From the NCBI GenBank assembly GCA_003660235.1, contig QGON01000066.1, forward strand, positions 62,001-126,000: a DNA stretch of 64,000 bases. Reading direction: 5' to 3'. The notes beneath the pieces are model-generated. The model was not told where the DNA came from, ran no database searches, and worked only from the letters and a program-made list of their open reading frames with translations. Positions 15,789 through 64,000 of this stretch are shown here, one piece after another; the stretch's first letter is position 1, and every line of letters starts with the position of its first letter. This DNA is from a bacterium endosymbiont of Escarpia laminata (lineage in GTDB: Bacteria > Pseudomonadota > Gammaproteobacteria > Chromatiales > Chromatiaceae). The position numbers and the translations under genes were made by a program.

Positions 15789-18700
15789 TCAGCGCCTGCT
15801 TCTGGAACTCCTGGCTTGCGGCGTGGCACTTGCTTCGTTCGAGGAGAGGGACTCGGAGCCGCCACTGACCGAAGTGACCACATAGTAGTAGGTCACGCCG
15901 TTGATCAGACCCGGATTGTAGTAGGCGCAATAGTCGCAGACATGCCCGCTTGCGATCTGTGCATAAGGGCCACCGGGCGTGGTGCTGCGATAGACGTTGT
16001 AGCTGTCAGCCCCTGCCACAGGCGTCCAGGTCAAGAAGACTTCATTCGACTTGGGACGGGCCGACAGGTTGAAGATCGTCTGCACCGCTCCAGCCTGCAC
16101 GGTCACCGTCAAGGTGTCACTGCCGACACCACCGTCTTTGTCCGTGATTATCAGAGTCACTGTATAGACGCCGGCTGTCGGATAGGTGTGGCTTGGGGTC
16201 AGACTGCCGTTCACGGTTGCGCTGCCGTCACCGAAGTTCCACTCGATGGTATGAGTATCAACCGATCCAGGATCAGTGAAGCTGCCGCTGAAGTTCGCGG
16301 TATCCCCTTCGTTGAACATCTGATCCGCTCCGGCATCCACGCTCGGTGCCACGTTGTTTACCGTCACGGTCAGGATGTCGCTACCAATTCCACCGTCCTT
16401 GTCAGTCACGATCAGGGTGACCGTGTAGACGCCGTTGTCGGCGTATACGTGGCTCAGGGTCAGGCTACCGCTCACCGGTGCGCTGCCGTCACCGAAGTTC
16501 CACTCGATGGTATGAGTGTCCACCGATCCAGGATCAGTGAAACTGCCGCTGAAGTTCGCGGTGTCGCCTTCGTTGATCGTCTGGTCAGGACCGGCATTTG
16601 CGCTCGGTGCCACGTTGTTGACCGTCACCGTGGCTGTGTCGGTGGCCGTGAGCAGACCGTCACTGACTTCGAGCCCAACGGTGAAGCTGGCGTCGTCTGG
16701 CTGGATCGGCAGGGTGACGGTAACACCGCTGGCGTCATCATACTGGCCGTCACCGTCCAGATCCCAGGCGTAGCTGAGTGGGCTCGGACCACTATCCGGA
16801 TCGTTGGAACCACTGCCGTCCAGGGTGACACCTTCTCCTTCGTTGATCGTGTAGGGACCAGCCGCCTCGGCGGTGGGTCCGACGTTGGCGGTGCTGAGGT
16901 TCACCTGGAGGCTGTCGCTGGCTGATGCCCCCTCATCATCGGTAACCGTGACCGTTACGGTGTAGTTGCCATCTGCTGCATAGACATGGCTGCCTGCCAC
17001 GCTGCCGCTGCCTGCACCCTGGGTCACTGTGCCGGGTTCAATAGTGCCGTCACCCCAGTCGATGGTGGCTGTGTGGGTGTCCTCTACACCGGCATCGGTG
17101 AAAGTGGCCGGGGCCAGAGCGATGGTATCGCCAGGCGCACCCGTCTGGTCCGGGCCGGCCTCGACTACTGGTGCTGCATTGTTCACCGTGATGGTGAGGC
17201 TGTTGCTGCCTGCTGCGCCGTCATCGTCGGTCACGCTGACCGTGACAGTATAGCTGCCGTCCTCTGCATAGGTGTGGCTGCCCAGTGCAACGCTGCCGCT
17301 GCCTGCGCCCTGAGTCACTGTACCGGGATCGGTGAAACTACCGGCAAAGTTGATCGTGTCACCTTCGCTGCTGGTTTGATCAGGACCGGCATCCACAAGC
17401 GGTGCTGCATTGTTGACCGTTACCGTTAAGGTATCGGTTCCTGCACCACCATCATCATCGGTCACCGTGATAGTTACCGTGTAGGTGCCGTCCTCTGTAT
17501 AGGAATGGCTTGGTGTCAGGCTGCCGCTGGCACTGTTGCCGTCACCAAAGTCCCACTCGATGGTGTGGGTGTCTGCGGTGCCGGGGTCGGTGAAGCTGCC
17601 GACGAAGTTGACGCTATCGCCTTCGTTGACGGTCTGATCCGCACCGGCATCAGCCATCGGCGCCACATTGTTGACCGTTACCGTGGTGCCTGCCGTATCG
17701 TCCAGCAGGCTGTCGCTTACCTGCAGGTGGATCGAATAGACGCCGTCATCCAGTCCGTTGAAGTTGGAAATCTGGCCGGTGGCATCGTCGAAGCCACCGT
17801 CATCATCCAGATCCCAGAGATAGACCAGCGGGTCGCCGTTGGGATCTGTGCCGTTGCCGTTCAATACAACAGCATCACCCTCATCGACGGTATAGGGACC
17901 ACCCACTGCTGCCGACGGCCCGAGGTTCTCCACCACGGTGGCCCGGGTGAACTCCTGGTCAGTCTTGCGCTCGTTCTCGTCTACCTCGCCGTCAGCGTCG
18001 ATATCGTTGAGGAAACCGTTGCCCCAAACCTTGAGTCCGATATCAAAGGTACCCAGGTCGATAAAAGTATGTTGCGCAGTTGCTCCGGTCGCGTCGTCAA
18101 AGTCCCTCGGTACCTCAGCCAGGTCGAGCTCCCATCCGAAACGGACGATGAAGTCATGTGGCTCGTCCAAATCGAACGAGGCAGATCCATCAAGTTGGCA
18201 GGGAATGCCCTGGGTACAGGTATAGGGACCACCTACATCGGCTACCGGCGGACGGGGCGGAATGCTGATGGTGATCTCGGTGGTGTCCGAAGAGGTCAGC
18301 GCCGGAACATTATTGTCGGTGACGCGTAGGGTTACGGTGAACGTCTGCGGCAGACTCGATTCTGGGTAGTCGGCCGAGCTGTAGGTATGTTCAGTCGTGG
18401 AACTGCTGCTGACATGGTCGAACTCACCATCCCCGTTGAAATCCCACTCGTACTTGATGATGCTCCGGAAAGAATCAAGATGGAAAGAACCCGAACCGTC
18501 GAAGGTCAGCGGACGATCCACCGCCCAGGTGCGATCTCTGCCCGCATCCGCCACCGGCGGTTGTACGAACAGGGTACGACTGAGAATGATCACGCCCCAG
18601 GCACTGCGTAGCTGAGCGGTAATCCATGCACTGCCCGGGAACTGGCCGTTGTCCGACTGATCATCCAGCAGGGTACGGGCGATACCGGTATCCGGATCGT

Positions 18701-21700
18701 TGAACCAATCAAAATCGTTCAACCGAAACTTCACCACAGAACCAGGCTGCGCCAGGCGCATCGCCTTGGTCAGTGCATAGTAGGCGTAGTAGGGACGGTT
18801 GTCCGGATTCTTGATGTATTCCGTCTCCCACCCCTCAGCAAGCCAACTCTCGGTTGCGCGCCACATGGGATTGGCGGTCTCTTTGCCGCTGAAGATAAGT
18901 TGGACCAGACCAGAGGGTGCGCCAGCACTGGTTGTGCCACCTGTCGTATAACCGAATCCCGTACCGTTGAAACTCCTACCCAGCCAGACCAAATTTCGAT
19001 CCTTCACCCACTGAGGTGTTGGAATGCCGAAGATATCCTGCGCTGCCAGCAGACCGATAGCGCCCCACTGTGCCGCCGAATTGTCAATGGAGTTGTTCCA
19101 GGAATAACGCCAGCCGCCACCGCTACCCTGCTCGGTCTGGCCCCAGGCGAACTGGTCGGACATGTCGGTAAGGATGTCGAAATAGGCGCGGCGTTTTACA
19201 TTGGTACCGCCGGTGATGCTCCGGGCCAGCGGTGTTCCCGAACTGGCGATAGCGTCCATGACCTGGCCGCCCTGGTAGATTGGCTGGCCACCAGAACTGC
19301 TGCTCCTGCCATTGATGATGCTGCTCTGGCCGGTCTGCAGACCAATGCCGTTGCCGTTGGTGTCGGGTTCACCATAGGTCTGGACGGCGATATCCACCGA
19401 ACCCAGATCACGGAACAGTTGGCGAAAACCACGCATCACGGTTTCCGCGTAGGGATCTTCGTGGTGACTGGAGGTCTCCAGGTGACCGTTGACCAGGAAT
19501 GCCTGCAGGGCGGAAGCGGTGGCGCTGGCCCGTGCGTTACTGGTCCAGTAACCGACATCGTAACCATCCTCGACCCGGCGGCTCTGGGTCTGGTGCAGGT
19601 ACCAGAGCCCCTCGTCGATGGCGACGTTGATCTCGGTGTTCATCACCTGAGGCTTGACCACGATGTTGTAGTTGTCCTGCCCCATCTGTCCGGCGCTGTC
19701 CCAGACCTTGAGGGTCGCCACGAACGGGGTATCGTTCGGCACATCGGGATAGGTGTGCTCGATGGAGAGATCATAGCGGTTAGCTACCGGGGTAACGGCC
19801 GAGGAAGTACCGTCGCCAAAGTCCCACTGGTAGTCGACTGGATCGGCATCGCGCACTATGCCCTTCAAATGGATCGACTTGCCGTTGTAGGTCTCATGGG
19901 GCGCCAGTGGATCATGGGCCACCCAGGGAACGGTGATGACATTCGGCGGCAGATTGGGAGCAACCGGCACCGTGACCTGGGCAGTGCTGGTCTGGCCGGC
20001 GCCGTCTTCTACCGTCAACAGTGCCACATATCCGCCAAGCGACTCGACCTTGAAATCATCGAATGTTGCCGTGCTATGGCTCACCGTAGCGGCAATCTTG
20101 AGCGGCGCTATACTCTGGTTGCGGGAACTGTATGAAGTTAGCGCAGTCCAGGTGGCCGCACCCTCTTCCCGGATGTAGTAATCAGCACCCTGCGTCTTGA
20201 TATCAACACGCACCTCATAGGTCGTTCCACGAACATAGCTGCCTACAGTGCCGCGGCCGGAACCATTTTCATAAATAGCCAGACTACCACTGTCGAAATA
20301 GATGGCATGAGCCATCACATTGTAATGCCCGCTGGCACCGCTGTCTTTGACGCCCCACATGATGCGTTGGGTACCACCATCCGCGGCGGGTTGCACCTTA
20401 CCGGTAAAGCTGACACGTTCACGGTCAAAATTGTCGGTACTATAGACATAGCGCTGCCCCCAAATACCACTTCCAGTGATTGACAAAACACCACCGCTCT
20501 GAGTGGCGCCGGCCGAAATCCATTTGACCGCATCGAGAGAAGCGCCTGCGAAGTCATCCGAAAGCAGCGTCCCGTTAGACCCGGTTGTCAGATTGTAAGT
20601 ATGGAAGGGTCGCGGTCCCACTGCATCGATATCGTTGGTGGGATCTCCGTCACCGTCACTGTCGGCCTGGTCATCGAAATCCCAACGGTATTCGATGATG
20701 CCGTAGTCATCGCTCGATTGTGAAGCATCGAAATAGGCCGGAGGCCCACCTGCACCCGCTTGAGACGGCGGTGTTACCAGCGCGACAGGCATATCGCCGG
20801 TCACCACTGTGACCACCACCGTATCCACGCTGGTCTGGCCTGTGTTGTCTGTCACGGTCAGGGTGACGGAATAATCCCCGGCTGCACGGTAGAAATGGTC
20901 AGGATTTGGCCCCTTGCCGGTATACGGAAGATCCGCATCACCAGGACCGCCAGTACTATCACCAAAATCCCAATGGTAGCTGGCAATCGCAGTATCGTCA
21001 CTGGAACCACTACCATTGAAGCGGATGAAACTGCCAACTTCTGCGGTATAGGGACCACCGGCAACGGCAACAGGCGGGGCACCCTGCTCCACGCTTACCG
21101 TCATGGTCTGGGAGGAGGACTGCAGCGCCTGGTCACGCACTGTCAGCTTGACCTCATGATCGCCTGTGGTCGCAAAACCGTGCTCCACCACATCGCCATA
21201 GATAACCTGTGCGCCGAATGATGGGTTGTCGAATTCAAAGACACCCGCATTCACCACGCCACCGATTTTTAACGGCGTTTCGGTACGGGTGCTGGTCTCA
21301 TACAGAAGACCCCAGGCGACTTCGTTAGCCGGCTTCATCTCATAGATGGCGCCTTCGGTTTTCAGGGTGATGCGAACATCATAGCGCTGGCCACGGGTAT
21401 AACCCCCTTTGTTCCCAAGGTCGCTACCATTCTCGTAGATGCGAATTAATCCGTTCCTGAAGTAGACGGCATGGGGCATCTGATTGTAGTGGAAGTTGCT
21501 GGTACTGCTGTTTTTGAGTCCCCACATACCATACTGGTTACCCGCCAGATTTACCGGCCGGATCTGGAACTGGAAGACCTTGCCATCTGTTCTGTCGTGA
21601 TTGTCCACGCTGGACAGATAACGATTGCTCCAGCTGCCGGCACCGGTCATGACGATCCTATCTTCCTGATAGACGCCAGTGGATGCGATCCACCGAGAGG

Positions 21701-24700
21701 CATCCAGGGTGTCTCCTGCAAAGTCGTCGATCAGCAGGGAGGGATCGAAGACCCATTCGTATTCGTAGATGCCAAAGTCATCGGTAGAGCCGCTACCGTC
21801 GAAGGTATCGTTCCAGAGACCGTTGCTCGCGTGGCTCTCATCCAGCAGTATCGGACCGGCGATGACCGGTTCGGGCGGCGCGCCCAGACTGACAGTTACC
21901 GTGGATAGAGCCGTGTCGGTCTGGCCCGCTCTATCGGTGGCCGCCACGATCAGATCGTAGGTGCCGGGAGAGGTATAACGGTGACGCGTGGAGACGCCGC
22001 CCAACCATGTACCCAGATCATTGTAGGCATTCGCCTCGCCCAGCGTCTGGATAACAACCGGTTGGCTGGTCGTGATTCGGTGATGCGGCGCACTGCCGCT
22101 GAAATCGGTCTGATTCAGGCGCAGGAATCCATCCCGCTTCAGGGTGCCGACAAGAAGGCCGTCCATCCGTACCTCGGTCCCGTCGTGCGGTGCGAATACG
22201 ATGACGCCCTCTCCCAGTTGATGGAGGAGGAAATCGGTGCCGCCGCGACCGGTGGTCATGGAGGTATCGTCACCCAGGTCGGTCAGCGTGTCGCCGCCCT
22301 CGGTGTCACCGGCCCAGACTTCCACATTGCCATTACTTACCAGGCGCAGTCGACGGGTTCCGAGGCCATTCTGATACCACATCTGCCCGGCGCTGACCGA
22401 CTGGATGTGGAGAGAGACACCGGAATCCATGTCGATGAGTTCAAGATCGGCATCTTCATGGGCGAAGACGGCGACCGCGCCGGTGGTGTGCTCATATACT
22501 GCGAACTGGAACTCCCGCCCAACCGGCGAACCGTTGGATGAAGGCACCGTGGTATAGCCGTTCCATCCGGTGGTCTGCATCGAGATAGGACCACTGGAGA
22601 CCACCCGGTAGCGGGTGGTACCGAGGAGCGTCGGCCGCCAATAGGTGTCTGCGGACATCGCCCGTTCAGCAATCAGGTTGTCACCGGTATCAAAAACCCT
22701 GACCAGACTGTCGGCATAGGCGAACAGATAAAAACCGTCATTGGGATCACGATGGAAGATGAACTCGTTACCCACCGGTTCCAGGTCGAGGGAGGGAACA
22801 AAGGCTGAATGGCGATCGAAATCAGTTTCGTAGACGACAACCGGCTTGTTCGCCTCAACCTTGAAGTAGACGCCGTCACCCGGTGAATAGTCCCACTGGC
22901 CGAAGCGATTCAGGCTGTTTCTGCCCAGTTCCCGGCCGGTTTCCAGGTCGATGACCCGCAACGCCGTGTCATCCTCAACGGCGATGATACGCAGAGAGGC
23001 CTGCGACAGATCGTAACCATAGAGATCAGTACCGGCGGTGAAATAACCCGTGCGCAGGCTACTGGCCTGGGCCGTGGTATAGGTGGTGCCATCGCCAAAA
23101 TCGACGGTGAAACGCTGGATGGCCAGATCATCCGTAGAGGCCGTCAGATCAGGTTCCAGCAGCCAACGCCCGGCCTGGGCATCCGCCTCGGTGAGCTCAT
23201 AAGGGCCACCATTGTTGGCGATCGGAGCCGCACCCGCTTCCACCACAACCTGCTGTGATGAAGTGGCGCTCTGGCCTGCGTGGTCGGTAGTGGTGAGCTG
23301 AATATCATAGACACCGGCTGCTGCATAGCGGTGAGGCACGGAACGTCCGTCGCTGCTGAGCCGGGTGATCCGTACATTGTCATAGACAAGGCTCTGGGCG
23401 TAGGACATTAGTCCAATGCCGCCCTTGCTATGCCTTGGATCGTCTGCTTCGAGCTGCAGGGTCTCAGTGCCACCATCCGGGGTCACATAGAGTTTCATGT
23501 TACCGCCGACGACCCGCAGGCGCAGGTGGTACCAGTAACCGGGATCCCAGCCGGAACCGTCGTCGACCAGGGTTTCATCGCTGCTCCAATCACGCAGGCG
23601 CCAGAAGTCCCAACTGTCACGGGAGTACATCATGAAGCCATTGCTGGTGCCTGGCTGATTATCACTGCGGAAGAGGATAGCTAAATAGCCGTCACCGGTA
23701 CTCACGCCGCGGAAGTCAAGTTCCAGCTCAAAGTCCCGATAGTCACCGGAGAGTTCCTGGAGATATCGCCAGGCGTTGCTGGTATTGGTCTGGTGCAGAC
23801 GGCCGTTCTCCACCAGCCAGGTGCCACCGGAAGTGGTCCAGGCTGGGTTGGCAGTGAAATCACCGTCGTCAAAATCATCACGCAGGGTGGCAACGATCTC
23901 TTCACTGCTACCATCACCCCAGTCGATCTGGTAGCTGGCTAGGGCACTGTCATCGCTGGAAGCGCCGATATCGAACCAACCCGTCCACTCACCGAGCGAG
24001 GCGTGACTTTCGTTCAATACTGCAGGACCGTTTAACACAGGCACAGGCGTTGTCCCTGTCCCCACGGTAACCGTGGCGGTGGCGGTAGCAGGCTGGCCCG
24101 CCCCGTTGTAGACGGTCAGGGTCGCCAGGTAGGTGCCAGATGTGCTGTAACCATGCTCGGGTGCTGCACCAGTCGCATCCACGCCGATGCCGTCCGCATC
24201 ATCGAAGTCCCACTCGTAGCGGGCGATACCGCTCTCGGGATCGCTGGAGCCCTTGCCGTCAAACACTGCACGCCAGGTTCCATTCAGGGCAACGTCTTCA
24301 CCAAAGTGATAGGGACCACCCGCATCAGCCACAGGAGGCGTGCCGCTGACAGTGACCTTGACACTGCTGCGATCCCGCTTGCCGTCACCGAAATCCCAGG
24401 CGTAGTGGATGATGGCGCCGTCATCGGTGGAAGCACTGGCGTCGAAGTCCACCGTTCCACCGGTTCCGGTGACATCGGTACTGGCTATGAGCTGACTGTA
24501 GGGCTGGCCGAAGACACGACCAGCGGGGGCGGCCACACCCAGGGTATTGGACGGGGTAGTGCCAATCTGAAGCCGATCACCAAAACTGGAGTCGCCGTTA
24601 CCCGGGTGGTACCAAATCTTGCGCCCGTTGTAATCGACGGAGACGATATCCTGGTTGCCGTCATTGTCGAAGTCGTAGACGCCGTAGGCGGCATGACGGT

Positions 24701-27149: not shown

Positions 27150-27161
27150 ATCCTTTCGTCT

Positions 27162-35266: not shown

Positions 35267-35535
35267 GACCTACCCGCAGTACGAGTACGGCTGAGACCTT
35301 TGCCCCGTAATTCCTTAACTTTCTATAAATCGATGGTTTTTTACTTCCTATTCGCTAAAAGTGATATTTCCATTCGCATTGAATTACCATGATTTTAGTC
35401 AGGTTAATTGCTCATTCCAGTTTTCCCCTTGGAAACTTGCGTTAATAATTTTTGGAAAGGCTTCAAATTGTCATCAGTTGGTGCCCATTTTTCAATTTAG
35501 CGCATTTTCGCGGCTGAAAGCCTTCTTCAACTGAA
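35267..35535. other. AT-rich gap between PKD remnants
   Basis: No gene is supported. The sequence is AT-rich and lies between the truncated PKD copy and the decayed FN3 copy. It probably represents non-coding sequence downstream of a lost giant gene. Confidence 0.4.
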
Positions 35536-54400: not shown

Positions 54401-57400
54401 GACAGATCCACCAAGGCTACACCGTTGGTTCCGCAACCAATAAATGCCAGGCCCTCATTTCGGGAGAGCGCCACGCTGTTGACCGTGTGATTTACCCGCA
54501 CTGCACTGATCAAGGTCGGGGTTGCGGGAATCCTCAGATCGAAGAACTGGATGGTGCCATCGGCGCCGTTGGCAACCACGGCCAGATCGAAAACCTCGGT
54601 ATCGGGATCGACGGATCCATCACCGTTGACATCCATTTCGAAGTCGGCGATGCCCGCAACACCCTGGGCATTACCGGTGGTCGATGCATTGCCGATGAAC
54701 GCCAGGGAGGCGGCATCGAGAACGGTCAGACCATTGATCCCGGCAACCAGCAGCTTGTCACCGAGAACAACGACATCATTTGCCGTCTCCAGTGCACTGG
54801 CCGGGAACCTTGGGCCGAGGGCGCCACCGGGATTGGCGGGGTCGTCAGGAATAGCCTGGCCGGTATCGACGCTTTCGACACCAATGGTCTGAACTGCAAC
54901 CAGGGCTTGTTGACCAGGTCCCACGGCTACCGCCGCCGGTATACCGGGGGAGTCAGGCACGCCAGCCGGAGGGGTCTGACCAGCGGGGGTACTGAGCTGG
55001 GAGCTGCCGATCATCAGTGGAGTGTCTGCAGTGTTGAGATCGAAAACCTGCAGCAAGCCGGCATCCGCACCACTGACTGCAAAACCCAGTGTGCCTGCGA
55101 CCGAATTGCCGTCGCGATCGATCAGGTTTGCACTTTCCAACAGCGCCACACCGGACACGCCGCCAGCCACCGGGATCTCATGGAGCACAACCGGCGCATC
55201 AACCACGCTGATATCGACGATGGATAGACCGGCATCCCCACCGACAAGGGCAAGATCGCCGGACACTGCCACATCGCGTGCAACACCAAGCGTAGTTCCA
55301 TCGAGGAGGCGCGGCATGAAGGTGGTGAACCCGTCCCCGAAAGGCTGCGCCAGTCGCGCACCTGAGAGCGCCAATAACCGGGTGGAGATCCCATAGCGAT
55401 AACTCCGGCCAAAACCCCAGCGCCGCATCGGAGTAAAAGTGACGCGAGTGGCATCATCTGTAACAGTGGTACGCCCGAAGACACGATTGCCTGCAAAATC
55501 GGTGACGACGATATTTCCACTCAAGGTCGTTGTATCGATGGACTCGGAGAATTCAAATTTGAGCGAGTCGCCAATATCGACCAGCGCATCTGCTCCGGGC
55601 CTTGCTTCTACATAGAGGGTGCCGGCTACTGCCCCCATCGGCTCACCTATGTCCAGACTACCGATAACCGGTGCCTGTCCCGAGGCCATGCCGTTTACCG
55701 CACCGGTGACTGGATCGTTGAACGAGAGTAAAAATACCGTGGCGGAAACAACCGGCAGATTAAACGCTGCATTCGGCCCTTCCGTCTCAAATACGAAGGG
55801 TGTTCCGTCCAGCGCGATGGTCGCCGCGGGTCCGGTATTCTGTCCGGTTACCGACACCAGCGGCTGGTCGGATGCCATGACTGCGTAAGTGGCGCCTGAC
55901 GTGGCACCAGGCAGCTCGCGGCCCGATGTCATCAGCATGGGCGTTCCGTCCACATCGACGATCTCCAGCCGGTCGACCAGGGCCAGCTTTGGCTCGCCTG
56001 CAAGTTCCGTGAGGCGCATCAACAGCAGGTCTGGCGTACCTACCAAAGCAGGCGGCACCGGCAGTTCGAGGTCGACCCGCGCCGCCGGGGCGATGGCTGA
56101 AGCGGAAAGCTGCTGGTTGGGCAGTCCTTCGGTCGGTGCCTCGAGGTAGAGGGTCGGGAAGCGGGAGACGAATCCCTGCTCGAGCAGATTTGTATTTGGA
56201 GCGCCGCCGACGATGAGGGTTGTAGTATCGAGGTTGTGGCGCTCACCGTTTTCATCCTCGGCCCTGGCATTGAACTTCACCGTGCCGTTGACCAGGAAAT
56301 CCACTGGCACGATCAGCGATCCGCTGCCCGTAAAAGGCGCGCTGCTTACAGTCACCGGCGCAAAGCGATCCTGGCTCTCTTCCAGCACCAGACTGGAAAG
56401 GCGTTTGAAACGTCCGCCGTCGAGTGACAGGTCGAACTGATCAATGTAACTGAAGCCAAACGGTAATGCGGGAAGACCCGAGGCATCGGCCAGCGGTTTG
56501 ATTCGTAGTTGAGTTGGTTCGGCCAGGGCGTCGGGAAGGATCGAGGCGGTACGCCCCTGACCGTCGTCGGCGGAACCCCCGGCAGCGCCAAATCCCACTG
56601 TGCCATCCTCACCCTCAAACTCCGTTATACGGAGTGTGAGTTCCTGGCCGGCAGCATTGCGGAAGGTCAGTCCCAGCTCATCGCCGATTGCGGCCCCGAT
56701 GCGCAAGCGGAATGACCCGTCATCCTGGGCCAGTGTCGAGAAGGTCTCCTGACTTACCAGATTGGTGATGGTGACCCCACTGCCCGCCTCGGCGGAACCC
56801 TGGCTGGCGATGATCTGCACCCTACCCTCCTCATCAGGCAGGGTGGCGAGGATCTGACCCGCTTCCGGCTGCGGCGGCTTGGAGGTGTCTATGGCGGTAA
56901 ATCCGACGGGCGCGAACGGCAGCAGGGCATTGCCAGCCAGATCGGCAACGGTATCTGTCAGTGTGAGGACATAAGCCGTAGCGGAACTCAGACCGCCGGC
57001 CGCTATGATGCTCAAGGAACTGCCATCGGCAGACAGTACCCGGCTTACCGTGACCGGCGTGCCATCGTCGAGCGTCAGGGCCACACTGGTATCGGTAAGC
57101 GTCGTCTCGTCTATCGGCTCGGAGAAATTGACGGCTATGGGCTGATTGAGCAGGACATCGAGCGCTCCACCCGCGGGATCGGTACTGACCACGCTGGGCG
57201 CGATCAGGTTTAGTGTGATGTCGAGCGCGGTCACTGTGGCCACAGTGCCGACTGTGACCTGGGCACTGGCCGCATCGCCGCTGGCCAACTCTGCCGCTGC
57301 CACACTGGTCTGGGTTGCCGCAACACCAGCCACGACGTAGCCGCCACCGATGCCTGTGACATCGGCGAATGGAGTATTGTCGCTGGTCACCAGGGCCTGT

Positions 57401-60400
57401 ACCTGTGGATTCACACCTCCCGGCATGAATACGCTGCCGGCTATCAGCCCAAGGGGATCGATCGAACGGAGAAAGAGGTAATCCCCGCTTCTGGTGATGC
57501 CAGGCAGGGTCAACCCGTTGACCTGTACACGCGTGTGGATACGCGTACCCTGAACCTCGCCCAAAGCGACGATACGTAAGCGGGGAACGCCGGCCGGATC
57601 CGTAAAACGCTGTGCAATAACGATAGAGTCAGCCTCAGTAACTCCGGCAGGTCGTATGATAGAGAGAAGTGCAGTTTCCGGCAGGGTCGTACCGCTGAGA
57701 TCCAGCGCAAGCGCATTGAGCAGTTCGATTCCAGAGGGCAGAGTCAGAGACGCCACCTCGGCAGGGAGCAATTCGATAACTTGATCTGCCGACAGTGCGG
57801 CAACAGGGATCTCCACCAGTGCACCCTGGCCGTCTCCCGTGCCACCCCCGGTCGTACCCATTACAGCGCCACCGAGACCGCCTCCCGGTGCAGTGACATC
57901 GATGAGGACCCGTCCCAGTTGCAGCTCGCGGATACTGAAGTCGCGGGACGGAGTGATGGGGAAATCGGTGGCCAGCGTCAGAGGTTCGGATCCACGAGGT
58001 TGCGCATACAACAGGATGTCTTGTGCAAAGGGTTGCGGTACCACTTGCGCACCATCGAGCAGGTCAAAGACCTCGCTGACACGACCAACGACCAGCGCGC
58101 CACTGGGCAACGCATCGGCTGGTGTGATCGCGATATGACCGACTGCACGCGCTCCCTCGCCCGGTGGTGCCGTGGGCGGTACAACATCGCCTTCGGCAAT
58201 GGCGGCATCGGGCACGGCCAGCGTGTTGACACCCATCAGAGGCTGCCCTGGTTGAGAGGTAGGTGGCGTGTGTGGCGCATCATCGGGCAACAGAAACGCA
58301 ACCTGACCGGTGACATGCAACGACAGATCGATCCTGCCTGCGTCGGTCGATACCTGCGCCGGCGCAAGCGCCACCCACTGGTGCAATCCTCTGTCATATA
58401 TAGCCGCTGAGACCGTGGACGAAGCAGACAGGTTGTATTTGTTGGGCAGGGTCAACACAACTGGCTGGAGGAGTGGGATCCCACCCGGCTCAACGTCGAT
58501 CGCCGAGACAGGTGACCAGCCTGCAGGCAGACGTCCCTGCAACCCCTGGTTACTGATGGGAGTCAGCCGGAGTTCGGCATCCACCGCCAGCGCGCCGGCA
58601 GGCAGCGACAGTTCAAAGAGCGTTGCCGAATCTGTGGCAACGCCACCGGCCGCTGAACTGATGCTATTAAACCGGGCATCCAGGGGCGTGAGGCGTGCAT
58701 CGAGCAGGGTGCGCGCGGTTCCCGATGGCACCCTGCCATGCCGCTCGACACTGGTGAAGCCATCGGCGCTGATCTGTACCAAGGCCTCCCCTTCCATACC
58801 GGGCAGCGCGTATTGCCCGCGTTCATCGGCTGAGTTCTCCAGCGGAGGCACGACAAGACCGCGACCATCTTCAACAAGACTTACCCTGGCTCCAGGTAGT
58901 GGCAACCCTTGGCTATCATCGAACACCTCTCCACGCAGGAATCCACTGCCGCTGCTGATGTCGACAGAGACGGTGCTGTCCACAGCACGGCCCTCATTGA
59001 CGGCAGTCACAATGGCCGATCCATTGGTTTGAGGCGTCAACCTGCCATCCTCATCGACCGAGACAACCCCCACCAGGCTACTTGTGTAGAGCGTGCCGCT
59101 GGCTGCTGCCGAAAGATCCCGACTGCTACCGTCGGAAAAGCTACCGGTCACCATGAGCTGGACTGCATCGCTGGTGGTGCGCAGAGTGACCTGTACCGGC
59201 GACATGTCGAGGCTGTCCAGGGTAATCCCCACCTCGACCACAACCTGAGCCTGATCGCTAAACCCGTTATGCTGGGCAGTGATTGTTGTGGCGCCATTGG
59301 CCAGTGCAGTTAGCCTTCCGTCACTCCCCACCGTTGCAACAAAGGGATTACCGGACTCATAGGTGGTGCCTGTGGCAGCCGCTGTAACGTCCTGGGTGGA
59401 TCGATCGGAGAAATCGGCGGTCACCGTCAAGGGTATCGTGGTACCGATGACGGTCAGACGTGCTCCCGCCGGGGCCAGCCTGATCCCTTCGAGCACCACC
59501 GGCAGCGGCGGCGCCACTGTGAGGGTGAAAGATTGTGAGACGAGCCCCCCCCGTCCATCATCAACACTGACGACTACAGAATGACCACCTGCTTGGGCAG
59601 CATCGGGCAGCCAGGACAACTGGCCACTGACGGGATCTATGCTCATACCCGCAGGGCCTGTGTTGATAGCGAAGGTGAGCGGATCGCCGTTCGGGTCTTC
59701 GGCATCGACATCGTATGCATAGGGTTCGGCAGCAATGGCATCAAGAACCGGTACAGAGGTGATGACAGGAGACTGATTGGGCGGTAGTGCAACGGTGAGT
59801 GTAAATGACTGCTGGGCAATGCCTCCACGCCCGTCTTCCACCTTCACCCTGACCTCCTGGTCGCCACTCTGGAAGAGATCGGGCATCCAATCAATCAAGC
59901 CAGTTTGGGGAGCTATAGCCATGCCGATGGGGGCCTGCTCAAGGGTAAAGATCACGGCATCCGAGTCTGGATCACTGGCCTCGACATCATAGGTGTATGT
60001 CGCACCTACAGCGGCATCCAGGACCGGGGCAGAGGTAAATACGGGTGACTGATTAGACGGTGAAACCAGTATCGAGAATACCTGCTCGGTGCTACCACCC
60101 TGCCCATCATCAACCTGGATCGTCACGGACTGACTACCGGTCTGTGTGGTGTCTGGCGTCCAGTTCACCACTCCGGTGGTTGGAATGATACTCATACCGG
60201 CTGGCGCCTGAACCAGAGCAAAGGTCAGCGGATCAGCCTCAGGGTCGGTGGCTTCAACATCATAGATGTACTCAACGCCTGCCACTGCATTCAACGGAGG
60301 TGTTGAGGTGACCATGGGACTTTGGTTGGGCGGCAGCACCACGACAAGGGTAAAGGACTGTTCGGCAATTCCACCCCGTCCATCATCAACACGAACTTTC

Positions 60401-62241
60401 ACCGCATGACTGCCGACCTGTGAGACGTCGGGTGTCCAAGCCATCAGGCCGGTGGCCGGGTCCAAACTCATTCCCGCCGGTGCCCGTACCAGTACATAGG
60501 TGAGTGGGTCTGCATCTGAATCACTGGCGTCAGCATCATAGGTATATGATTCTCCGGCAACCGCGCTCAATAACGGTGCAGATGTGAATACCGGACTTTG
60601 ATTTGCAAGAGGTGTTACCACAATAGTGAAGGACTGTTCGGCAAAACCTCCCTGCCCGTCCTCTACCCTTATTCTCACAGCCTGATTACCGATCTGTGAT
60701 CCGTCGGGTATCCAGCTCATCTGACCTGTAGCCGGATCGATGCTCATTCCAGCAGGTGAATGAACCACTGAAAAGGCCAGGGGGTCAGCATCAGGATCGT
60801 TGGCATCAGCATCATAGGTATATGCCAGGCCAACAAATGCATTCAATATGGGCGTTGAGGTGAATATCGGACTCTGGTTGGATGGAGCCGTTACGACGAT
60901 AGCAAAGGACTGTTCGGCAATGCCTCCATGTCCGTCATCTGCCTGGATGGTCACCGCCTGGTTACCAACCTGTGAAATATCGGGTGTCCAGCTCACCTGA
61001 CCGGAGACCGGATCTATAACCATGCCGCCGGGTGCCTGAACCAAAGCAAAGGTTAACTGGTCATTATCCGGGTCGCTGGCAGCAGCACCGTAGCTATATG
61101 CCACACCGACCACAGCCTCTAAATCAGGTATGGAGGTAAACGACGGTGAACTATTGAGCAGCGGTAAGTTTTCAACAGTAACCGTAAACGCCTGGGTTAC
61201 ACTTGAACCCTTTCCGTCGTCTACCTGCACTTCAACCGGATAAGATCCGGGGTTCTGAGGTGTCCAACCGATGCGCCCGGTGGCATTGTCAATGGCCATG
61301 CCGGCAGGGGCAGACACGTGACTATAGATCAGGTTGTCCCGATTGGGGTCGGCCGCGTTGACATCATAGTTGAACTCTACGCCAACCGTGCCGTGAGTGA
61401 TGGCAGTCGAATAGATAAGCGGTGCATGGTTCGGTGGAGCAGTGCTGCCTCTACCCCGCCGCCGAACCCGCCGTTCACTCGGATTGATGGCTACTACCTC
61501 TGAATAACACCAGTTACCCTGTAACAGAGCACCTACCACATAGAGATAGCTTTCCCCATTGGTCAGACCCAGATCGAGATAGGTGGAATAGGTCGACGTG
61601 GTTTCCGCAATTTTTATAAAACTCCCGGGACTGCTCTGGTGTGCTCTGTAGACATCATAATGTTCGGTACCCTCCAGGTGGGTCCAGATCAGGCTGACCT
61701 GGCCAGGTTTTGGCCGGGCAGACAGGGCGAAACAGGGAGTGACACTGATTTCTGCAGCATCCGGGACAGAACGCAAGTTGCCGTTGTCCACGATCAGCGT
61801 GACGCTATACCTACCTTCCGGGATGGAGACAGCAGAAACCTGATCGGCACTGGTCGCAAATGGGCCATACCAGTGATAGGAGAGTGGATTACCTTCGGAG
61901 TCTGTACCTGAGCCCTGCAACGTCACCTGTGCGGCGATCGGCTGATCCTTGTCCAGCATGCGGTCGCTGCCTGCATCCGCAACGGGTTGGGCCGCCATGG
62001 CAGCATCCGGGCTGCCCTGCATGAAAATCGTTATAAATAAGAGAACCCTGAAAATTGTCCACAATCCCGCAGGAGCATTAAACAAATGCTTATACCTGTT
62101 AGCCGATCCTGAGATGCGGCACAAGGAGACAAAAAAAGCGCGCAAGTTCCTTAGGCGTTTCCAGGAAACGCTTGCTACCCTGCCTTCCGCAAACCATGAT
62201 GGATAAGTATCCATATATACCCAGGTCTTATGCCTCTTCAA
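48493..62241 (-). CDS. Giant secreted Ig-like protein with embedded subtilisin (S8) protease
   Basis: About 4582 residues; the start is uncertain (TTG 62241 or ATG 62214, neither with a good ribosome-binding site). Signal peptide about 62-82 (IFRVLLFITIFMQG). Then PKD-like (84-165); FN3 with an Arg-rich stretch ERRVRRRGRG (165-270); seven cadherin-like NQSP repeats (270-914); Big_2 (920-1100); carboxypeptidase-regulatory and ZU5-like regions (1100-1330); Big_5 domains near 1700 and 2250; LVIVD-like propeller (2304-2670); Big_2 (2797-2987); PPC (3080-3190); IPT/TIG (3197-3280); I9-like prodomain (3283-3370); S8 domain with AFIDKGF (Asp about 3430), GHGTAM (His about 3474), PAGN (Asn about 3582) and GTSYAAAM (Ser about 3660); a second propeller (3744-4230); and an unassigned C-terminus. 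The catalytic residues are all present. Target unknown. Confidence 0.85.
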   Translation of the reverse strand: MKRHKTWVYMDTYPSWFAEGRVASVSWKRLRNLRAFFVSLCRISGSANRYKHLFNAPAGLWTIFRVLLFITIFMQGSPDAAMAAQPVADAGSDRMLDKDQPIAAQVTLQGSGTDSEGNPLSYHWYGPFATSADQVSAVSIPEGRYSVTLIVDNGNLRSVPDAAEISVTPCFALSARPKPGQVSLIWTHLEGTEHYDVYRAHQSSPGSFIKIAETTSTYSTYLDLGLTNGESYLYVVGALLQGNWCYSEVVAINPSERRVRRRGRGSTAPPNHAPLIYSTAITHGTVGVEFNYDVNAADPNRDNLIYSHVSAPAGMAIDNATGRIGWTPQNPGSYPVEVQVDDGKGSSVTQAFTVTVENLPLLNSSPSFTSIPDLEAVVGVAYSYGAAASDPDNDQLTFALVQAPGGMVIDPVSGQVSWTPDISQVGNQAVTIQADDGHGGIAEQSFAIVVTAPSNQSPIFTSTPILNAFVGLAYTYDADANDPDADPLAFSVVHSPAGMSIDPATGQMSWIPDGSQIGNQAVRIRVEDGQGGFAEQSFTIVVTPLANQSPVFTSAPLLSAVAGESYTYDADASDSDADPLTYVLVRAPAGMSLDPATGLMAWTPDVSQVGSHAVKVRVDDGRGGIAEQSFTLVVVLPPNQSPMVTSTPPLNAVAGVEYIYDVEATDPEADPLTFALVQAPAGMSIIPTTGVVNWTPDTTQTGSQSVTIQVDDGQGGSTEQVFSILVSPSNQSPVFTSAPVLDAAVGATYTYDVEASDPDSDAVIFTLEQAPIGMAIAPQTGLIDWMPDLFQSGDQEVRVKVEDGRGGIAQQSFTLTVALPPNQSPVITSVPVLDAIAAEPYAYDVDAEDPNGDPLTFAINTGPAGMSIDPVSGQLSWLPDAAQAGGHSVVVSVDDGRGGLVSQSFTLTVAPPLPVVLEGIRLAPAGARLTVIGTTIPLTVTADFSDRSTQDVTAAATGTTYESGNPFVATVGSDGRLTALANGATTITAQHNGFSDQAQVVVEVGITLDSLDMSPVQVTLRTTSDAVQLMVTGSFSDGSSRDLSAAASGTLYTSSLVGVVSVDEDGRLTPQTNGSAIVTAVNEGRAVDSTVSVDISSGSGFLRGEVFDDSQGLPLPGARVSLVEDGRGLVVPPLENSADERGQYALPGMEGEALVQISADGFTSVERHGRVPSGTARTLLDARLTPLDARFNSISSAAGGVATDSATLFELSLPAGALAVDAELRLTPISNQGLQGRLPAGWSPVSAIDVEPGGIPLLQPVVLTLPNKYNLSASSTVSAAIYDRGLHQWVALAPAQVSTDAGRIDLSLHVTGQVAFLLPDDAPHTPPTSQPGQPLMGVNTLAVPDAAIAEGDVVPPTAPPGEGARAVGHIAITPADALPSGALVVGRVSEVFDLLDGAQVVPQPFAQDILLYAQPRGSEPLTLATDFPITPSRDFSIRELQLGRVLIDVTAPGGGLGGAVMGTTGGGTGDGQGALVEIPVAALSADQVIELLPAEVASLTLPSGIELLNALALDLSGTTLPETALLSIIRPAGVTEADSIVIAQRFTDPAGVPRLRIVALGEVQGTRIHTRVQVNGLTLPGITRSGDYLFLRSIDPLGLIAGSVFMPGGVNPQVQALVTSDNTPFADVTGIGGGYVVAGVAATQTSVAAAELASGDAASAQVTVGTVATVTALDITLNLIAPSVVSTDPAGGALDVLLNQPIAVNFSEPIDETTLTDTSVALTLDDGTPVTVSRVLSADGSSLSIIAAGGLSSATAYVLTLTDTVADLAGNALLPFAPVGFTAIDTSKPPQPEAGQILATLPDEEGRVQIIASQGSAEAGSGVTITNLVSQETFSTLAQDDGSFRLRIGAAIGDELGLTFRNAAGQELTLRITEFEGEDGTVGFGAAGGSADDGQGRTASILPDALAEPTQLRIKPLADASGLPALPFGFSYIDQFDLSLDGGRFKRLSSLVLEESQDRFAPVTVSSAPFTGSGSLIVPVDFLVNGTVKFNARAEDENGERHNLDTTTLIVGGAPNTNLLEQGFVSRFPTLYLEAPTEGLPNQQLSASAIAPAARVDLELPVPPALVGTPDLLLMRLTELAGEPKLALVDRLEIVDVDGTPMLMTSGRELPGATSGATYAVMASDQPLVSVTGQNTGPAATIALDGTPFVFETEGPNAAFNLPVVSATVFLLSFNDPVTGAVNGMASGQAPVIGSLDIGEPMGAVAGTLYVEARPGADALVDIGDSLKFEFSESIDTTTLSGNIVVTDFAGNRVFGRTTVTDDATRVTFTPMRRWGFGRSYRYGISTRLLALSGARLAQPFGDGFTTFMPRLLDGTTLGVARDVAVSGDLALVGGDAGLSIVDISVVDAPVVLHEIPVAGGVSGVALLESANLIDRDGNSVAGTLGFAVSGADAGLLQVFDLNTADTPLMIGSSQLSTPAGQTPPAGVPDSPGIPAAVAVGPGQQALVAVQTIGVESVDTGQAIPDDPANPGGALGPRFPASALETANDVVVLGDKLLVAGINGLTVLDAASLAFIGNASTTGNAQGVAGIADFEMDVNGDGSVDPDTEVFDLAVVANGADGTIQFFDLRIPATPTLISAVRVNHTVNSVALSRNEGLAFIGCGTNGVALVDLSGPISIQPIDLDFDTLDDRVLGQVSTSGSAGSVALDLARGVGYVADGASGLTVVQLLPPRTVFTQIRRDPVAAITGEEQSILDSRAAFLTDDELEITISAVIPPRSGLYLAIEEVPNAGGAAVVRFPDGTTSAPLSSGSNLLVARIGDLPSTGSLVSLKIQDQGGRLLDRFDLELSLPDIGDAELVSLFVAPEEMTIPADGQTAQISVGGQFSNGLSLNLTGSSSGTQYSPLGTAVATVNVEGLVTAVAGGRTTVQVSNAGRGADVGIDVQQPPALTGIRLDQTSLTLVAPGAQVQLQVTGLMSDQSDADLTLDSGIQYGSDATNVVTVDSNGLISATGEGLGVVSVSNGAFTDSVRIAVEFRTPPDVAAIDLAPFTGPVRTDRGQVLMQAGISGTGSLEGLTISFSILNSGLAPMTAVTDYSGVALAGIVESLGAGSYTVEASIIDPASGDVLIDAESLVVTAASGDIEPNDTLDSASIIDQDLPINGGLDGSTDAIDNFRMTSSTGGTLTLILELAEGTALSDVTVRLLSSDGSVLAVFTPEAEFSSFEFDILAGDSYLEVGNGTGLLDYSLRTSVEAGPLEVLSVSPAAGGTATLVTIAGSGFSTLPSANMVQFGGIMGEMVSVTSTQLQVLVPANATDGPVEVIVGSQRVSGPEFLTGNTGPPPTPTGSRLDPDSVRRDPVTGLEIVVNQLIVRFRPIVEGTEVEDLALGLDGQVVGYLPLSNTYLLEFPAIETIKGLHALEQTLDAEPRVLFASHNALGDSRGRLDTRDGVANHHSDAYRLAGIFEATERIRRTPPFDDPSNFEKVHIAFIDKGFSPVVLQEFDFADTQVHELDCPGVHPTPCTTAVVPNAPDPSGHGTAMVSIVGMDNDNTVVNGILSGIYQPDLVEQQRNKNNNTFSIYAVPETYFQAAQALLLIANNPHKADVVVLGWGWGFGSPGMHQQRCISFFTPVLANMLDRTLVIVPAGNADRSDQYDCPGSLSVDPALGNVMTVGGITVHPGNRGRRLPGSNYGPTITLAAPAEDILAVNSSWAFNPDTPYMNRTGTSYAAAMVAGVAGMLQAIHDCSAAGADVCPDPPVPRFKPAELKKILLETAKDNSSSWDQGDMKRLNALGAVHEVLPRLDRQAIYVADQDAFNGPGNPLGRLIAMDVDPVTGEPGLSQVVPLKLDVDSQTLTGTRPTALETCGPFLFVVVEDSSGNLGDGVMQFYTPLMQPMAFYPFSGAKFPVPAAGNSQQKVKLMTNRPGMVCSKDRTLLYVGGTRGITIINIVERKLVQRLSDLPDTANITPADITAFDERRVNLGQLFDIGIPTLNGYKKVTMVSCLELSPDGKTLYACLSTGRGKGSQPGAVLPINVDLYKDAKPEQGLQTDFSDYLSLSMNFQDWPSTNPQDGVEKLMMLMKNPGSTAGGDEPSDVAVGADGKYLYLLNGGVFEYQGILDGKFPPEYYEALAGGQAIGAASSATTGGIDGLLQGLSNLVTQISGVYADLLHDLLEDLKKGKTLLSAPGYTGTFAAKTHQVTGGTYLQGDRIWFFPPEVLFGWNVSTSDNSLLLDQSYQPQVFAKRPFAMSFRPTPGPVSNPFSSSRALVAFHQTGNFGVLDLITQKEFQQAPPSGSESEGVGPHPDFAQLPPDMFQGVVGVTPAIPLDAHLWPRRGLLPLQSSGPTFTSPLLPSPDEALLFTNDLVYAQSGRFAVASHAGFGSPITYEDVVVDDFLDSELVRARLEDLGFTISGTTATGAAGTLDEGVQFIQNGFADFRRGGGAISIIHDEPISDDFIEHFDTTVSEFSEGSDRAYFSVIPVCKKVSGGTSGPLSPACEEEVTTRVYDYRTPDSPEKERFHRPRGIAIDQFVYISLPRFGRHIGADDDFTVEWRDPRVKKAEFYVYDLDDTDFNGIPQLVSSKTFNVTTDEKDIRRLRRDLTSLIDSPLEHLQRYRIKVRLLLDTPVIGGQYLFTHVDVTYDEP
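59508..61433 (-). repeat. Seven tandem cadherin-like (NQSP) repeats
   Basis: Units of about 273-279 bp each encode NQSPxFTSxPxL ... YxYDVxAxDPDxDxLTF ... PAGMSIDPxTGxxxWTPD ... QSFTxxV. The first copy is divergent. The DxDxDP pattern suggests Ca binding at inter-domain joints. Confidence 0.75.
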
Positions 62242-62486: not shown

Positions 62487-64000
62487 CTATCTCCTACTTC
62501 TTCTCTCTACTGGCGTGGCGCTGGCCTCGTTCGAAGGCAGTGACTCGGCACCACCGCTGACCGAGGTGACCACGTAGTAGTAGGTCACGCCGTTTGTCAG
62601 ACCCTGATCCCAGTAGCTGCAGTAGTCACAGACATAGCCGTTGGCGATCTGCGTGTAGGATCCACCGGCAGTGGTGCTGCGGTAGACGTTGTAGTTGTCC
62701 GCTCCGCTCACCGGTGTCCACATGACGAACACTTCTGTGGGCTTGGCACGGGCTGCTACGTCGAAGATCGTCTGCACCGCTCCTGCCTGCACGGTCACCA
62801 TCAGGGTGTCACTGCCGACACCACCGTCTTTGTCGGTGACCGTGAGGGTGACCATATAGACACCTGCTGTGGCATAGGTATGGCTCGGGGTCAGACTGCC
62901 GCTTTCGGTAGCACCGTCACCAAAGTTCCACTCGACGGTGTGGGTGTCGACTGTGCCGGGATCGGTGAAGCTACCACTGAAACTGGTGGTGTCACCTTCA
63001 TCGATGGTCTGGTCAGGACCGGCCTCTACCGTCGGTGCAACGTTGTTGACCGTCACGGTCAGGCTATCCGTGCCGACACCGCCATCTTTGTCGGTGACCG
63101 TCAGGGTGACCGTGTAGATGCCGTTGTCTGTGTAGGTATGACTCGGGGTCAGGCTGCCGCTGTCAGTGGTGCCGTCGCCAAAGTTCCACTCGATGGTGTG
63201 GGTATCGACTGCGCCGGGATCAGTGAAGCCACCGTTGAAGCTGGCGGTGTCACCTTCGTTGATCGTCTGATCAGCACCCGCATCCACGGCCGGTACGACA
63301 TTGTTGACCGTCACGGTCAAGGTGTCGCTACCCACACCACCGTCCTTGTCGGTAACTGTCAGGGTGACCGTGTAGACACCGTTGTCTGCGTATACGTGGC
63401 TGGGTGTGTGACTGCCGCTGGTGCTGCTGCCGTCGCCGAAGTTCCATTCGACGGTATGGGTGTCTACCGTTCCCGGATCAGTGAAGCTGCCTGCGAAGTT
63501 GACGGTATCACCTTCATTGGCTGTCTGGTCAGGACCCGCATCCACGCTCGGTGCCACGTTGTTGACCGTCACTGTTGCAGTGTCAGTGGCCGTAAGCAGA
63601 CCGTCACTGACTTGGAGTCCAACGGTGAAGCTGGTGTTATCAGGTTGGATAGGCAGGGTCACGGTGACACCAGTGGCGTCATCGTACTGGCCGTCGTTAT
63701 CCAGATCCCAGGCGTAGCTGAGTGGGCTCGGGCCGTTGTCCGGGTCGTTGGAGCCGCTGCCGTCAAGGGTGACACCTTCGCCTTCGTTGATGGTGTAGGG
63801 TCCACCCGCGTTGGCGGTGGGAGCTGCGTTGCCGCTGGCAAGGATCACCTGGAAGCTGTCGCTGCCGAAGAGACCGTCATCATCGGTGACTGTCACCATG
63901 ACCGTATAACTGCCGTCTGCCGCGTAGGCATGGCTACCTGCCACGCTGCCACTGCCAGCGCCCTGAGTTAGCGTACCGGGTTCAACCGTGCCGTCGCCCC
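62487..64000 (-). CDS. PKD-repeat protein with FN3 tail (5' end outside window)
   Basis: The open frame continues past the right edge, so only the last ~504 residues are visible. They comprise the end of one PKD, a PKD with SYAWDLDNDGQYDDATG, three PKD units closely related to each other (WNFGDG, YTVTLTVTDKDGGVG) and a C-terminal FN3 with YVCDYCSYWDQG, ending SNEASATPVERRSRR. The order and sequence match the C-terminal end of the 3786-aa protein, so the two are paralogues. Its stop lies 245 bp upstream of the S8 giant's start on the same strand. It is probably secreted, but the leader is not visible. Confidence 0.85.
   Translation of the reverse strand, partial: GDGTVEPGTLTQGAGSGSVAGSHAYAADGSYTVMVTVTDDDGLFGSDSFQVILASGNAAPTANAGGPYTINEGEGVTLDGSGSNDPDNGPSPLSYAWDLDNDGQYDDATGVTVTLPIQPDNTSFTVGLQVSDGLLTATDTATVTVNNVAPSVDAGPDQTANEGDTVNFAGSFTDPGTVDTHTVEWNFGDGSSTSGSHTPSHVYADNGVYTVTLTVTDKDGGVGSDTLTVTVNNVVPAVDAGADQTINEGDTASFNGGFTDPGAVDTHTIEWNFGDGTTDSGSLTPSHTYTDNGIYTVTLTVTDKDGGVGTDSLTVTVNNVAPTVEAGPDQTIDEGDTTSFSGSFTDPGTVDTHTVEWNFGDGATESGSLTPSHTYATAGVYMVTLTVTDKDGGVGSDTLMVTVQAGAVQTIFDVAARAKPTEVFVMWTPVSGADNYNVYRSTTAGGSYTQIANGYVCDYCSYWDQGLTNGVTYYYVVTSVSGGAESLPSNEASATPVERRSRR
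62800..63560 (-). repeat. 258-bp tandem DNA repeats (three PKD units)
   Basis: The motif TTGTTGACCGTCAC recurs at 63043, 63301 and 63559, exactly 258 bp apart, with near-identical flanks such as TTCCACTCGAxGGTxTGGGT. This high nucleotide identity suggests recent duplication or gene conversion. Confidence 0.8.

What the first reader, a model, noticed from the sequence alone, without database searches (positions are those of the whole stretch)
15789..64000. 48-kb island of giant secreted repeat proteins in two apparent operons
Four intact ORFs (3786, 2054, 3728, ~4582 aa), a Gly-rich partner and a fifth partial giant lie on one strand with 12-72 bp gaps inside units. All with visible N-termini carry signal peptides. 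Mixed PKD, FG-GAP, Ig, RHS, protease and propeller domains suggest a cell-surface or matrix assembly that I cannot match to a named system. Keeping about 14,000 codons free of stops implies selection.
Basis: partly seen in the sequence, partly recalled or inferred. Interest (0 to 1): 0.8.

Follow-up and report, generated by a model that had tools for sequence, protein, structure and literature searches.

The report
Recombining giant Rhs surface-protein gene array
A stretch of very large genes for secreted proteins in a gammaproteobacterium is really two separable gene sets, a three-gene cassette and repeated pairs that include a toxin-like Rhs shell protein, which are shuffled between related species and may serve contact or competition with other cells.

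Summary
In detail: four giant ORFs (3786, 2054, 3728, ~4573 aa), a Gly-rich partner and a fifth giant (4163 aa in full, preceded by a 2294-aa RHS gene outside the window) on one strand, all under purifying selection (dN/dS 0.13-0.22).

A single 48-kb assembly is not supported. (i) RHS->PKD giant pairs are the genus element: RHS C is in 6 of 6 genomes of the genus; the window lacks pair B, which G005 has, and keeps PKD debris at 34133-35754. (ii) A trio, T1 (Ig/subtilase), T2, T3 (Gly-rich), is in 2 of 6 and, without RHS nearby, in another genus. T3 is rare; elsewhere it often follows a secreted TIG protein carrying a short YD repeat and sometimes precedes an RHS giant.

PKD 3' ends look homogenised between paralogs. 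The window's RHS C differs most from its relatives at the plug region and the tail. Best reading: a hypervariable Rhs-type surface/effector array with no recognised immunity gene. Function, export route and partnership are inferred.

The parts
62487..64000 (-). 3' part of PKD giant C (4163 aa, continues to contig position equal to window 74978); ends in fn3 domain + Arg-rich tail; its RHS partner lies outside at 75038-81922
48493..62214 (-). T1: giant with fn3/He_PIG/cadherin-like Ig repeats, Big_5, Big_2, LVIVD, TIG and a Peptidase_S8 domain (residues 3468-3716 of the TTG frame) with Asp, His and Ser motifs
   Evidence: 88% identical to the G005 protein
37278..48464 (-). T2: giant with CarboxypepD_reg, Big_5 and Big_7 arrays; its C-terminal part shares one Ig-like domain with the YD-TIG proteins that precede T3 elsewhere
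35877..37214 (-). T3: 445-aa Gly-rich protein, beta-rich low-confidence model; found after T2-type or YD-TIG proteins
34133..35754 (-). Decayed remnants of PKD-giant 3' ends where relative G005 has a complete RHS->PKD pair B (about 20.9 kb); includes the 377-aa ORF 34133-35266
27162..33326 (-). RHS giant A (2054 aa): signal peptide by eye, FG-GAP repeats, Ig-type matches, DUF6531, YD/RHS repeats, RHS core with PxxxxDPxG and 142-aa tail
15789..27149 (-). PKD giant A (3786 aa): FG-GAP, PKD array, 3keto-disac_hyd-like insert, two domains without Pfam match (residues 1366-1718 and 2504-2865), fn3 + Arg-rich tail
11299..15131 (-). Conserved flank, not part of the array: lipid A acyltransferase family gene (14241-15131), VWA gene (12231-14105), 311-aa gene (11299-12234)

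Best explanation
The locus is a hypervariable Rhs-type surface/effector array, exported by Sec (signal peptides by eye). Its repeating unit is an RHS giant followed at once by a dedicated PKD giant. The RHS protein is expected to fold into a YD cocoon with a 142-182-aa C-terminal tail behind an aspartyl self-cleavage motif (shown: repeats, core motif, both aspartates; inferred: cocoon, cleavage, tail function). The PKD giant, with Ig-type, FG-GAP and lectin-like modules, is inferred to be the surface carrier or adhesin of its RHS partner. A separable trio (T1-T2-T3) is present in some species; T3 is related to proteins of a small cassette in which a TIG protein with a short YD repeat, T3 and, in some genomes, an RHS giant follow one another. 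Units are gained, lost and homogenised by recombination between repeated PKD 3' ends (debris shown; mechanism inferred). Likely role: contact with, or antagonism of, neighbouring cells.
For: RHS A matches solved Rhs and teneurin-like shells: 7q97 E=4.5e-46, 9pt5 E=1e-35. PxxxxDPxG and a second, upstream Asp in 5 of 5 RHS proteins compared (motif from passages of PMC8765631). Tails are the most divergent part: 9-24% between paralogs against 29-64% in the other segments after the signal region. Tail dS is 1.37-1.44 against about 0.2 in two flank genes, consistent with allele replacement. In RHS C the window differs from the four genomes compared by windows at the plug region (~aa 897-1040, 43-71%) and the tail (~aa 2165-2294, 52-71%); other windows are 77-97%, except 71-75% at ~aa 747. 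PKD paralogs are mostly 45-63% identical in the first ~2250 aa and 63-95% (mostly 69-88%) from ~aa 3030 on, where orthologs have 79-94% apart from one 44-column window of 52%. RHS->PKD adjacency in 10 of 11 readable cases at this locus, gaps 12-84 bp. T3 next to YD-TIG proteins in 9 genomes. GspD in 10 of 10 genomes searched, T6SS VipA in 4 of 10, not in G002 and G004, which carry RHS C.
Against: No immunity-like gene seen: the slot after RHS holds a PKD giant. Tails A and C matched no Pfam family above cut-off (only weak, sub-threshold matches). The RHS C tail is 91-97% identical among five of the six genomes, not typical swapping. The plug/tail pattern is one case: RHS A differs from its ortholog in tail (73%) and FG-GAP part (71%) but not in the plug-region segment (89%). 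The other two RHS giants of the genome that I looked at (C5, C65) are not followed by PKD giants. In G016, L019 and L020 the T2-T3 block has no RHS neighbour in the stretch examined. Nothing was measured at the protein level.
Confidence: 0.5

Rival explanations
1. Pure adhesin/matrix array: giant secreted Ig/PKD/RHS proteins build a cell-surface coat or biofilm matrix, the RHS shell being a structural or adhesive module (as in metazoan teneurins) with no toxic cargo; recombination gives antigenic or binding diversity.
For: The Pfam-named domains are mostly beta-sandwich and propeller types plus one protease; no immunity gene seen; purifying selection including on tails, omega 0.14-0.17; tails without toxin match; teneurins show that YD shells can serve adhesion (abstract of PMC13018210).
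Against: The Rhs core keeps PxxxxDPxG and both aspartates in 5 of 5, and the window's RHS C diverges most at the two ends of the presumed shell, which a purely structural shell does not predict.
Confidence: 0.33
2. Genomic relic or selfish expansion: paralogous giant genes kept by recurrent duplication, mostly without function.
For: Debris of a lost pair, broken frames in G001 and G002.
Against: dN/dS 0.126-0.215 for the seven genes compared; RHS C retained in 6 of 6 genomes of the genus.
Confidence: 0.06
3. Extracellular degradative complex: the subtilase and 3keto-disaccharide-hydrolase-like modules digest polymers, the rest being binding scaffolds.
For: Peptidase_S8 with Asp/His/Ser motifs in window and G005; 3keto-disac_hyd match E=2.8e-8.
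Against: One protease domain in the ~15,500 residues scanned; its motif patterns were not found in the G016 homolog; the ten flank ORFs scanned include no glycosidase.
Confidence: 0.08

Closest known systems
Rhs polymorphic toxins (T6SS RhsA-type and secreted forms)
   Same: YD/RHS repeats, RHS core, PxxxxDPxG with two aspartates, divergent C-terminal tail
   Different: Signal peptide (by eye) and no PAAR match in Pfam; no adjacent immunity gene seen; PKD giant partner; R or E instead of W/L/F after DPxG
Bacterial teneurin-like proteins (PMC13018210)
   Same: Large YD-shell protein with N-terminal adhesion-type domains and a short C-terminal domain; sequence match to solved TLPs
   Different: No NHL match in the Pfam scan of RHS A, FG-GAP repeats instead; no downstream immunity gene seen
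Tc toxin BC components
   Same: FG-GAP-type repeats plus YD shell and tail in the RHS part
   Different: No SpvB match in Pfam for RHS A, single chain, PKD giant partner; a TcA partner was not searched for
Large Ig-repeat adhesins (general kind, recalled)
   Same: Signal peptide by eye, long PKD/Ig arrays
   Different: Paired with an RHS protein; fn3 + Arg-rich end

Membership tests
Rhs polymorphic toxin | YD/RHS repeats and RHS-associated core | tested here: met
   RHS_repeat E=2e-70; Rhs_assc_core E=7e-20; 7q97 E=4.5e-46
Rhs polymorphic toxin | Aspartyl autoprotease motif PxxxxDPxG(W/L/F) with Asp dyad | tested here: inconclusive
   PxxxxDPxG and an upstream Asp in 5 of 5, but R or E follows; cleavage itself not testable
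Rhs polymorphic toxin | Hypervariable C-terminal domain | tested here: inconclusive
   9-24% between paralogs, raised dS, but 91-97% among five of six genomes for unit C
Rhs polymorphic toxin | Adjacent cognate immunity gene | tested here: not met
   12-59 bp to a PKD gene of 3786-4364 aa in the window genome and G005; overlapping frames were not examined
Rhs polymorphic toxin | Recognised toxin fold in tail | tested here: not met
   No Pfam family above cut-off for tails A and C at E up to 5; weak: Lactamase_B 0.083, DUF6918 0.011, LPD11 0.11; tail B not scanned; no fold prediction of tails made
T6SS Rhs effector | PAAR or similar T6SS N-terminal domain | tested here: not met
   None among Pfam matches of RHS A
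T6SS Rhs effector | T6SS in the genome | tested here: inconclusive
   VipA is present in the window's own genome and G001, G003, G005, but not in G002 and G004, which carry RHS C
Teneurin-like protein | FN-plug, NHL and YD-shell superfold | tested here: not met
   No NHL in the Pfam scan of RHS A; FN-plug not tested; RHS C not scanned; definition from section 6 of PMC13018210
Teneurin-like protein | Downstream immunity gene | tested here: not met
   feature from passages of PMC13018210
Tc toxin BC | SpvB domain | tested here: not met
   No SpvB among Pfam hits of RHS A
Tc toxin BC | TcA partner | not tested
   not searched

The most novel reading that the evidence does not exclude
A new multi-component Rhs system: a Sec-exported Rhs cocoon works only with a giant PKD partner encoded where an immunity gene would sit, and a family of secreted TIG proteins carrying one stray YD repeat docks into Rhs shells by donating that repeat, with T3 as a third structural part; plug and tail are swapped as a matched set.
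Probability: 0.15. Interest if true: 0.8.

Novelty: new variant of a known kind. Interest (0 to 1): 0.5.

Why it matters
The Rhs proteins in the papers I saw are mainly T6SS effectors, polymorphic toxins or relatives of teneurins. An Rhs array with giant dedicated partners, no visible immunity gene and unit loss and gain between congeners is a natural case for asking how YD shells moved between toxin and adhesion roles. The recurring TIG(YD)-T3(-RHS) cassette is a concrete, testable gene module that my searches did not show as described.

Tried and rejected
T3 structure: the AlphaFold model of A4 reached mean pLDDT 67.5, pTM 0.61; Foldseek against PDB gave no match at E<=0.001: fold unassigned. 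The conserved 362-aa domain of the PKD giants, which I took by eye for an alpha/alpha toroid, failed as a single-sequence model (pLDDT 33.4, pTM 0.22), had no significant PDB profile match (best E=1.4) and no Pfam match: unproven. The domain at residues 1366-1718 (IgGFc-binding-like by recall) likewise (best E=0.97; no Pfam). A hidden immunity gene in the 657-bp gap after PKD A was looked for by eye in three frames: no clear one; the other strand looks rhodanese-like to me, recalled and not searched. Rfam and tRNA scans of the window were empty. Mobile-island idea: no integrase among Pfam matches of ten flank ORFs; not tested further. Literature searches; no listed title or abstract start deals with this gene order, but only open-licence papers are held. 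Papers: PMC13018210 (abstract, outline, passages, section 6), PMC8765631 and PMC3482391 (passages only); all others seen only as search listings.
Full report
OBSERVATION. The window is G000:C57:62001-126000 of a 4.25-Mb genome in 71 contigs. Reading on along the contig, the partial fifth giant is 4163 aa (62487-74978 in continued window coordinates) and is preceded by an RHS ORF of 2294 aa at 75038-81922. Pfam gives, among others, PKD, FG-GAP, He_PIG, REJ and 3keto-disac_hyd for PKD A; RHS_repeat, FG-GAP_3 and DUF6531 for RHS A; CarboxypepD_reg, Big_5 and Big_7 for T2; He_PIG, Cadherin_5, Big_5, Big_2, TIG, LVIVD and Peptidase_S8 for T1; none for T3. Signal peptides were judged by eye. Nei-Gojobori dN/dS against the congener G005: PKD A 0.126, RHS A 0.140, T3 0.157, T2 0.150, T1 0.215, PKD C 0.141, RHS C 0.159; two flank genes 0.105 and 0.169.

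COMPARISON WITHIN THE GENUS. G005 is a one-contig genome of the same genus. Between the same flanks it holds, in order of transcription, RHS C-PKD C, T1-T2-T3, RHS B-PKD B, RHS A-PKD A. RHS-to-PKD gaps are 12 bp for A and B, 51 bp for C in G005, 59 bp for C in the window, 66-73 bp for C in G001-G003 and 84 bp for 'D' in G003 and G004. The window lacks pair B; where about 20.9 kb stand in G005 (26172-47048 of the joined stretch) it has 2.4 kb (33327-35769) with several PKD 3'-end fragments, one of them the 377-aa ORF at 34133-35266. RHS C is found in 6 of 6 genomes of the genus, the window's included; in G004 it lies on another contig than its presumed PKD partner, and in G001 the PKD gene is in several frames. 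RHS A has a close match only in G005 (82%). T3 has a match in 2 of 6 (G000, G005). G002 has RHS C and PKD C followed at once by 1863 aa of a B/A-type PKD C-terminus in another, overlapping frame, as expected of a deletion by recombination between PKD repeats (inferred). G003 and G004 carry another RHS ('D', 2062 aa in G004, fragmentary in G003) with its own PKD partner; its leader partly resembles that of T1, then differs. G001 is rearranged and holds a 746-aa ORF whose first 687 aa match the T1 N-terminus (79% to G005), and a truncated RHS not followed by a PKD gene. G003 and G004 are drafts that break inside PKD repeats, so their arrangement is incomplete; absence of T3 there rests on whole-genome searches.

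RECOMBINATION SIGNS. In 200-column windows PKD paralogs are mostly 45-63% identical over the first ~2250 aa of PKD A and 63-95%, mostly 69-88%, from ~aa 3030 on; orthologs have 79-98% in all windows but two (73%, and 52% over 44 columns) among those with letters. dS is about 0.2 in flank genes, 0.27-0.33 in T1/T2, 0.51-0.56 in PKD, 0.59-0.78 in RHS and 1.37-1.44 in RHS tails, with omega 0.14-0.17 in tails. For RHS C, 75-column windows were printed for the window allele against four of the five other genomes (G004 not printed): strongest divergence at ~897-1040 (43-71%) and ~2165-2294 (52-71%), a smaller dip at ~747 (71-75%), 77-97% elsewhere; G003 has its own dip at ~447-597. Averages for all 15 pairs are: tails 66-67% for pairs with the window, 91-97% among the others; plug-region segment 72-74% against 86-99%. 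RHS A does not repeat the pattern: plug-region segment 89% to G005, tail 73%, FG-GAP part 71%. The plug/tail coupling is thus a single case.

RHS PROTEINS. phmmer against PDB: 21 distinct sequences at E<=0.001, best an Rhs family protein (7q97, 4.5e-46), also teneurin-like proteins (9pt5, 9ifo) and Rhs effectors. PxxxxDPxG and an earlier Asp occur in 5 of 5 proteins inspected; the next residue is R (A, B) or E (C), where PMC8765631 gives W/L/F (passages). Tails A and C have only sub-threshold Pfam matches. No 19-residue stretch of the four tails computed passes 1.6 in mean hydropathy.

T3 AND ITS NEIGHBOURS. T3 matches, own genome counted: 5 of 55 relatives; 8 of 369 genomes of the class; 9 of 210 of the order, of which 4 cover most of the profile; 4 of 398 of the phylum, of which only the window's own covers most of it. 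I inspected neighbourhoods for 17 stretches, the window included, and G518 and G419 later (the G419 stretch showed no clear T3 gene). Of the 40 loci I inspected 7 (L019-L022, L033, L039, L045). A protein with one or two YD repeats near its N-terminus and TIG-type domains precedes T3 in G043, G052, G152 (twice), G165, G176, G230, L022, L045 and G518; seven of these ten proteins were caught by a motif pattern, the YD of G165, G176 and G518 by eye. In L033 and L039 no YD motif was found in the preceding protein; in G000, G005, G016, L019 and L020 it is T2 or a T2 relative (in L020 T3 was seen by tblastn, not as a clean ORF); in G272 a 1764-aa protein with a T2-profile match; L021 is cut before it. 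An RHS gene follows T3 directly in G052, G165 and G230 by profile, and in L022 by YD motifs only (no profile hit); after one intervening ORF in G176 and L039; in L045 it lies upstream. In G005 RHS B follows T3, in the window RHS A follows after the debris. It does not follow in G016 (rest of the 80 kb), L019 (a protein kinase), L020, L021 or G272 (a protein with an FG-GAP-part match only); G043, G152, L033 and G518 end too soon to tell. T2's C-terminal part and the YD-TIG profile share one domain (hhalign probability 92-94%). The T2-T3-RHS order of G005 thus resembles a recurring cassette, but the link is not universal.

PKD PARTNERS. The 362-aa domain at residues 2504-2865 of PKD A is found at full strength in 6 of 6 genomes of the genus and in one other of 369 class genomes (G126), weakly in others such as G010; G126's contig is too short to show an RHS neighbour. 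The two other RHS giants of the window's genome that I looked at (L107, L108) are not followed by PKD giants.

EXPORT. GspD-type secretins occur in 10 of 10 genomes searched, T6SS VipA in 4 of 10, the window's own included. RHS C persists in G002 and G004 without a VipA match, which suggests that a T6SS is not required. Export through Sec followed by T2SS or another route is inference.

MECHANISM, graded. Shown: genes, order, selection, a missing unit with debris, similar 3' ends, Rhs-type core. Inferred: cocoon, self-cleavage, surface display, PKD giant as carrier, role in contact or antagonism. Unknown: the target, tail activity, the function of T1-T3. I give 0.5 to the Rhs effector/contact array, 0.33 to a purely adhesive or matrix role.

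NOVELTY. Rhs proteins with signal peptides and Ig domains are known (passages of PMC3482391), and YD-shell teneurin-like proteins with immunity genes are described (PMC13018210). What differs here is the giant PKD partner in place of an immunity gene and the array dynamics. I therefore rate it a new variant of a known kind.

Noticed in passing
continued contig, 83263-84093 (L008 19263-20000 and start of L009): A protein ending in a PEP-CTERM-like sorting signal (recalled motif) and two pentapeptide-like ORFs (by eye) lie between RHS C and an AcrB-like gene (by eye); the block recurs in congeners.
   Followed up: no
L107 8602-18567; L108 5890-12900: The window's genome has two further RHS giants (3321 and 2336 aa) elsewhere, with matches in congeners; a 200-aa ORF overlaps the end of the second (12848-13450).
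   Followed up: partly
L140 9760-15126: Two tandem proteins (843 and 820 aa) carry a distant copy of the unassigned PKD-giant domain plus PKD-like repeats; a further match is on contig C66.
   Followed up: partly
L076 3455-4450 (G052): A stand-alone RHS core fragment with its own tail lies after the full RHS gene, like orphan rhs tips.
   Followed up: no
L074 (G152) and L039: T3 is duplicated in tandem; in G152 each copy has its own YD-TIG protein upstream.
   Followed up: no
L155 (G680): A weak T3 match lies in an open frame of 12,772 codons.
   Followed up: no
window 2847-7414: AAA_5 ATPase, DUF2201 metallopeptidase/VWA and M48 peptidase genes in a row on the + strand.
   Followed up: no
3' ends of PKD genes, e.g. 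window 15792-16079 and 62490-62777: The five PKD giants compared end in an fn3-like domain with a CDYC motif and an Arg-rich tail; a similar fn3 + Arg stretch lies inside the T1 N-terminus.
   Followed up: partly
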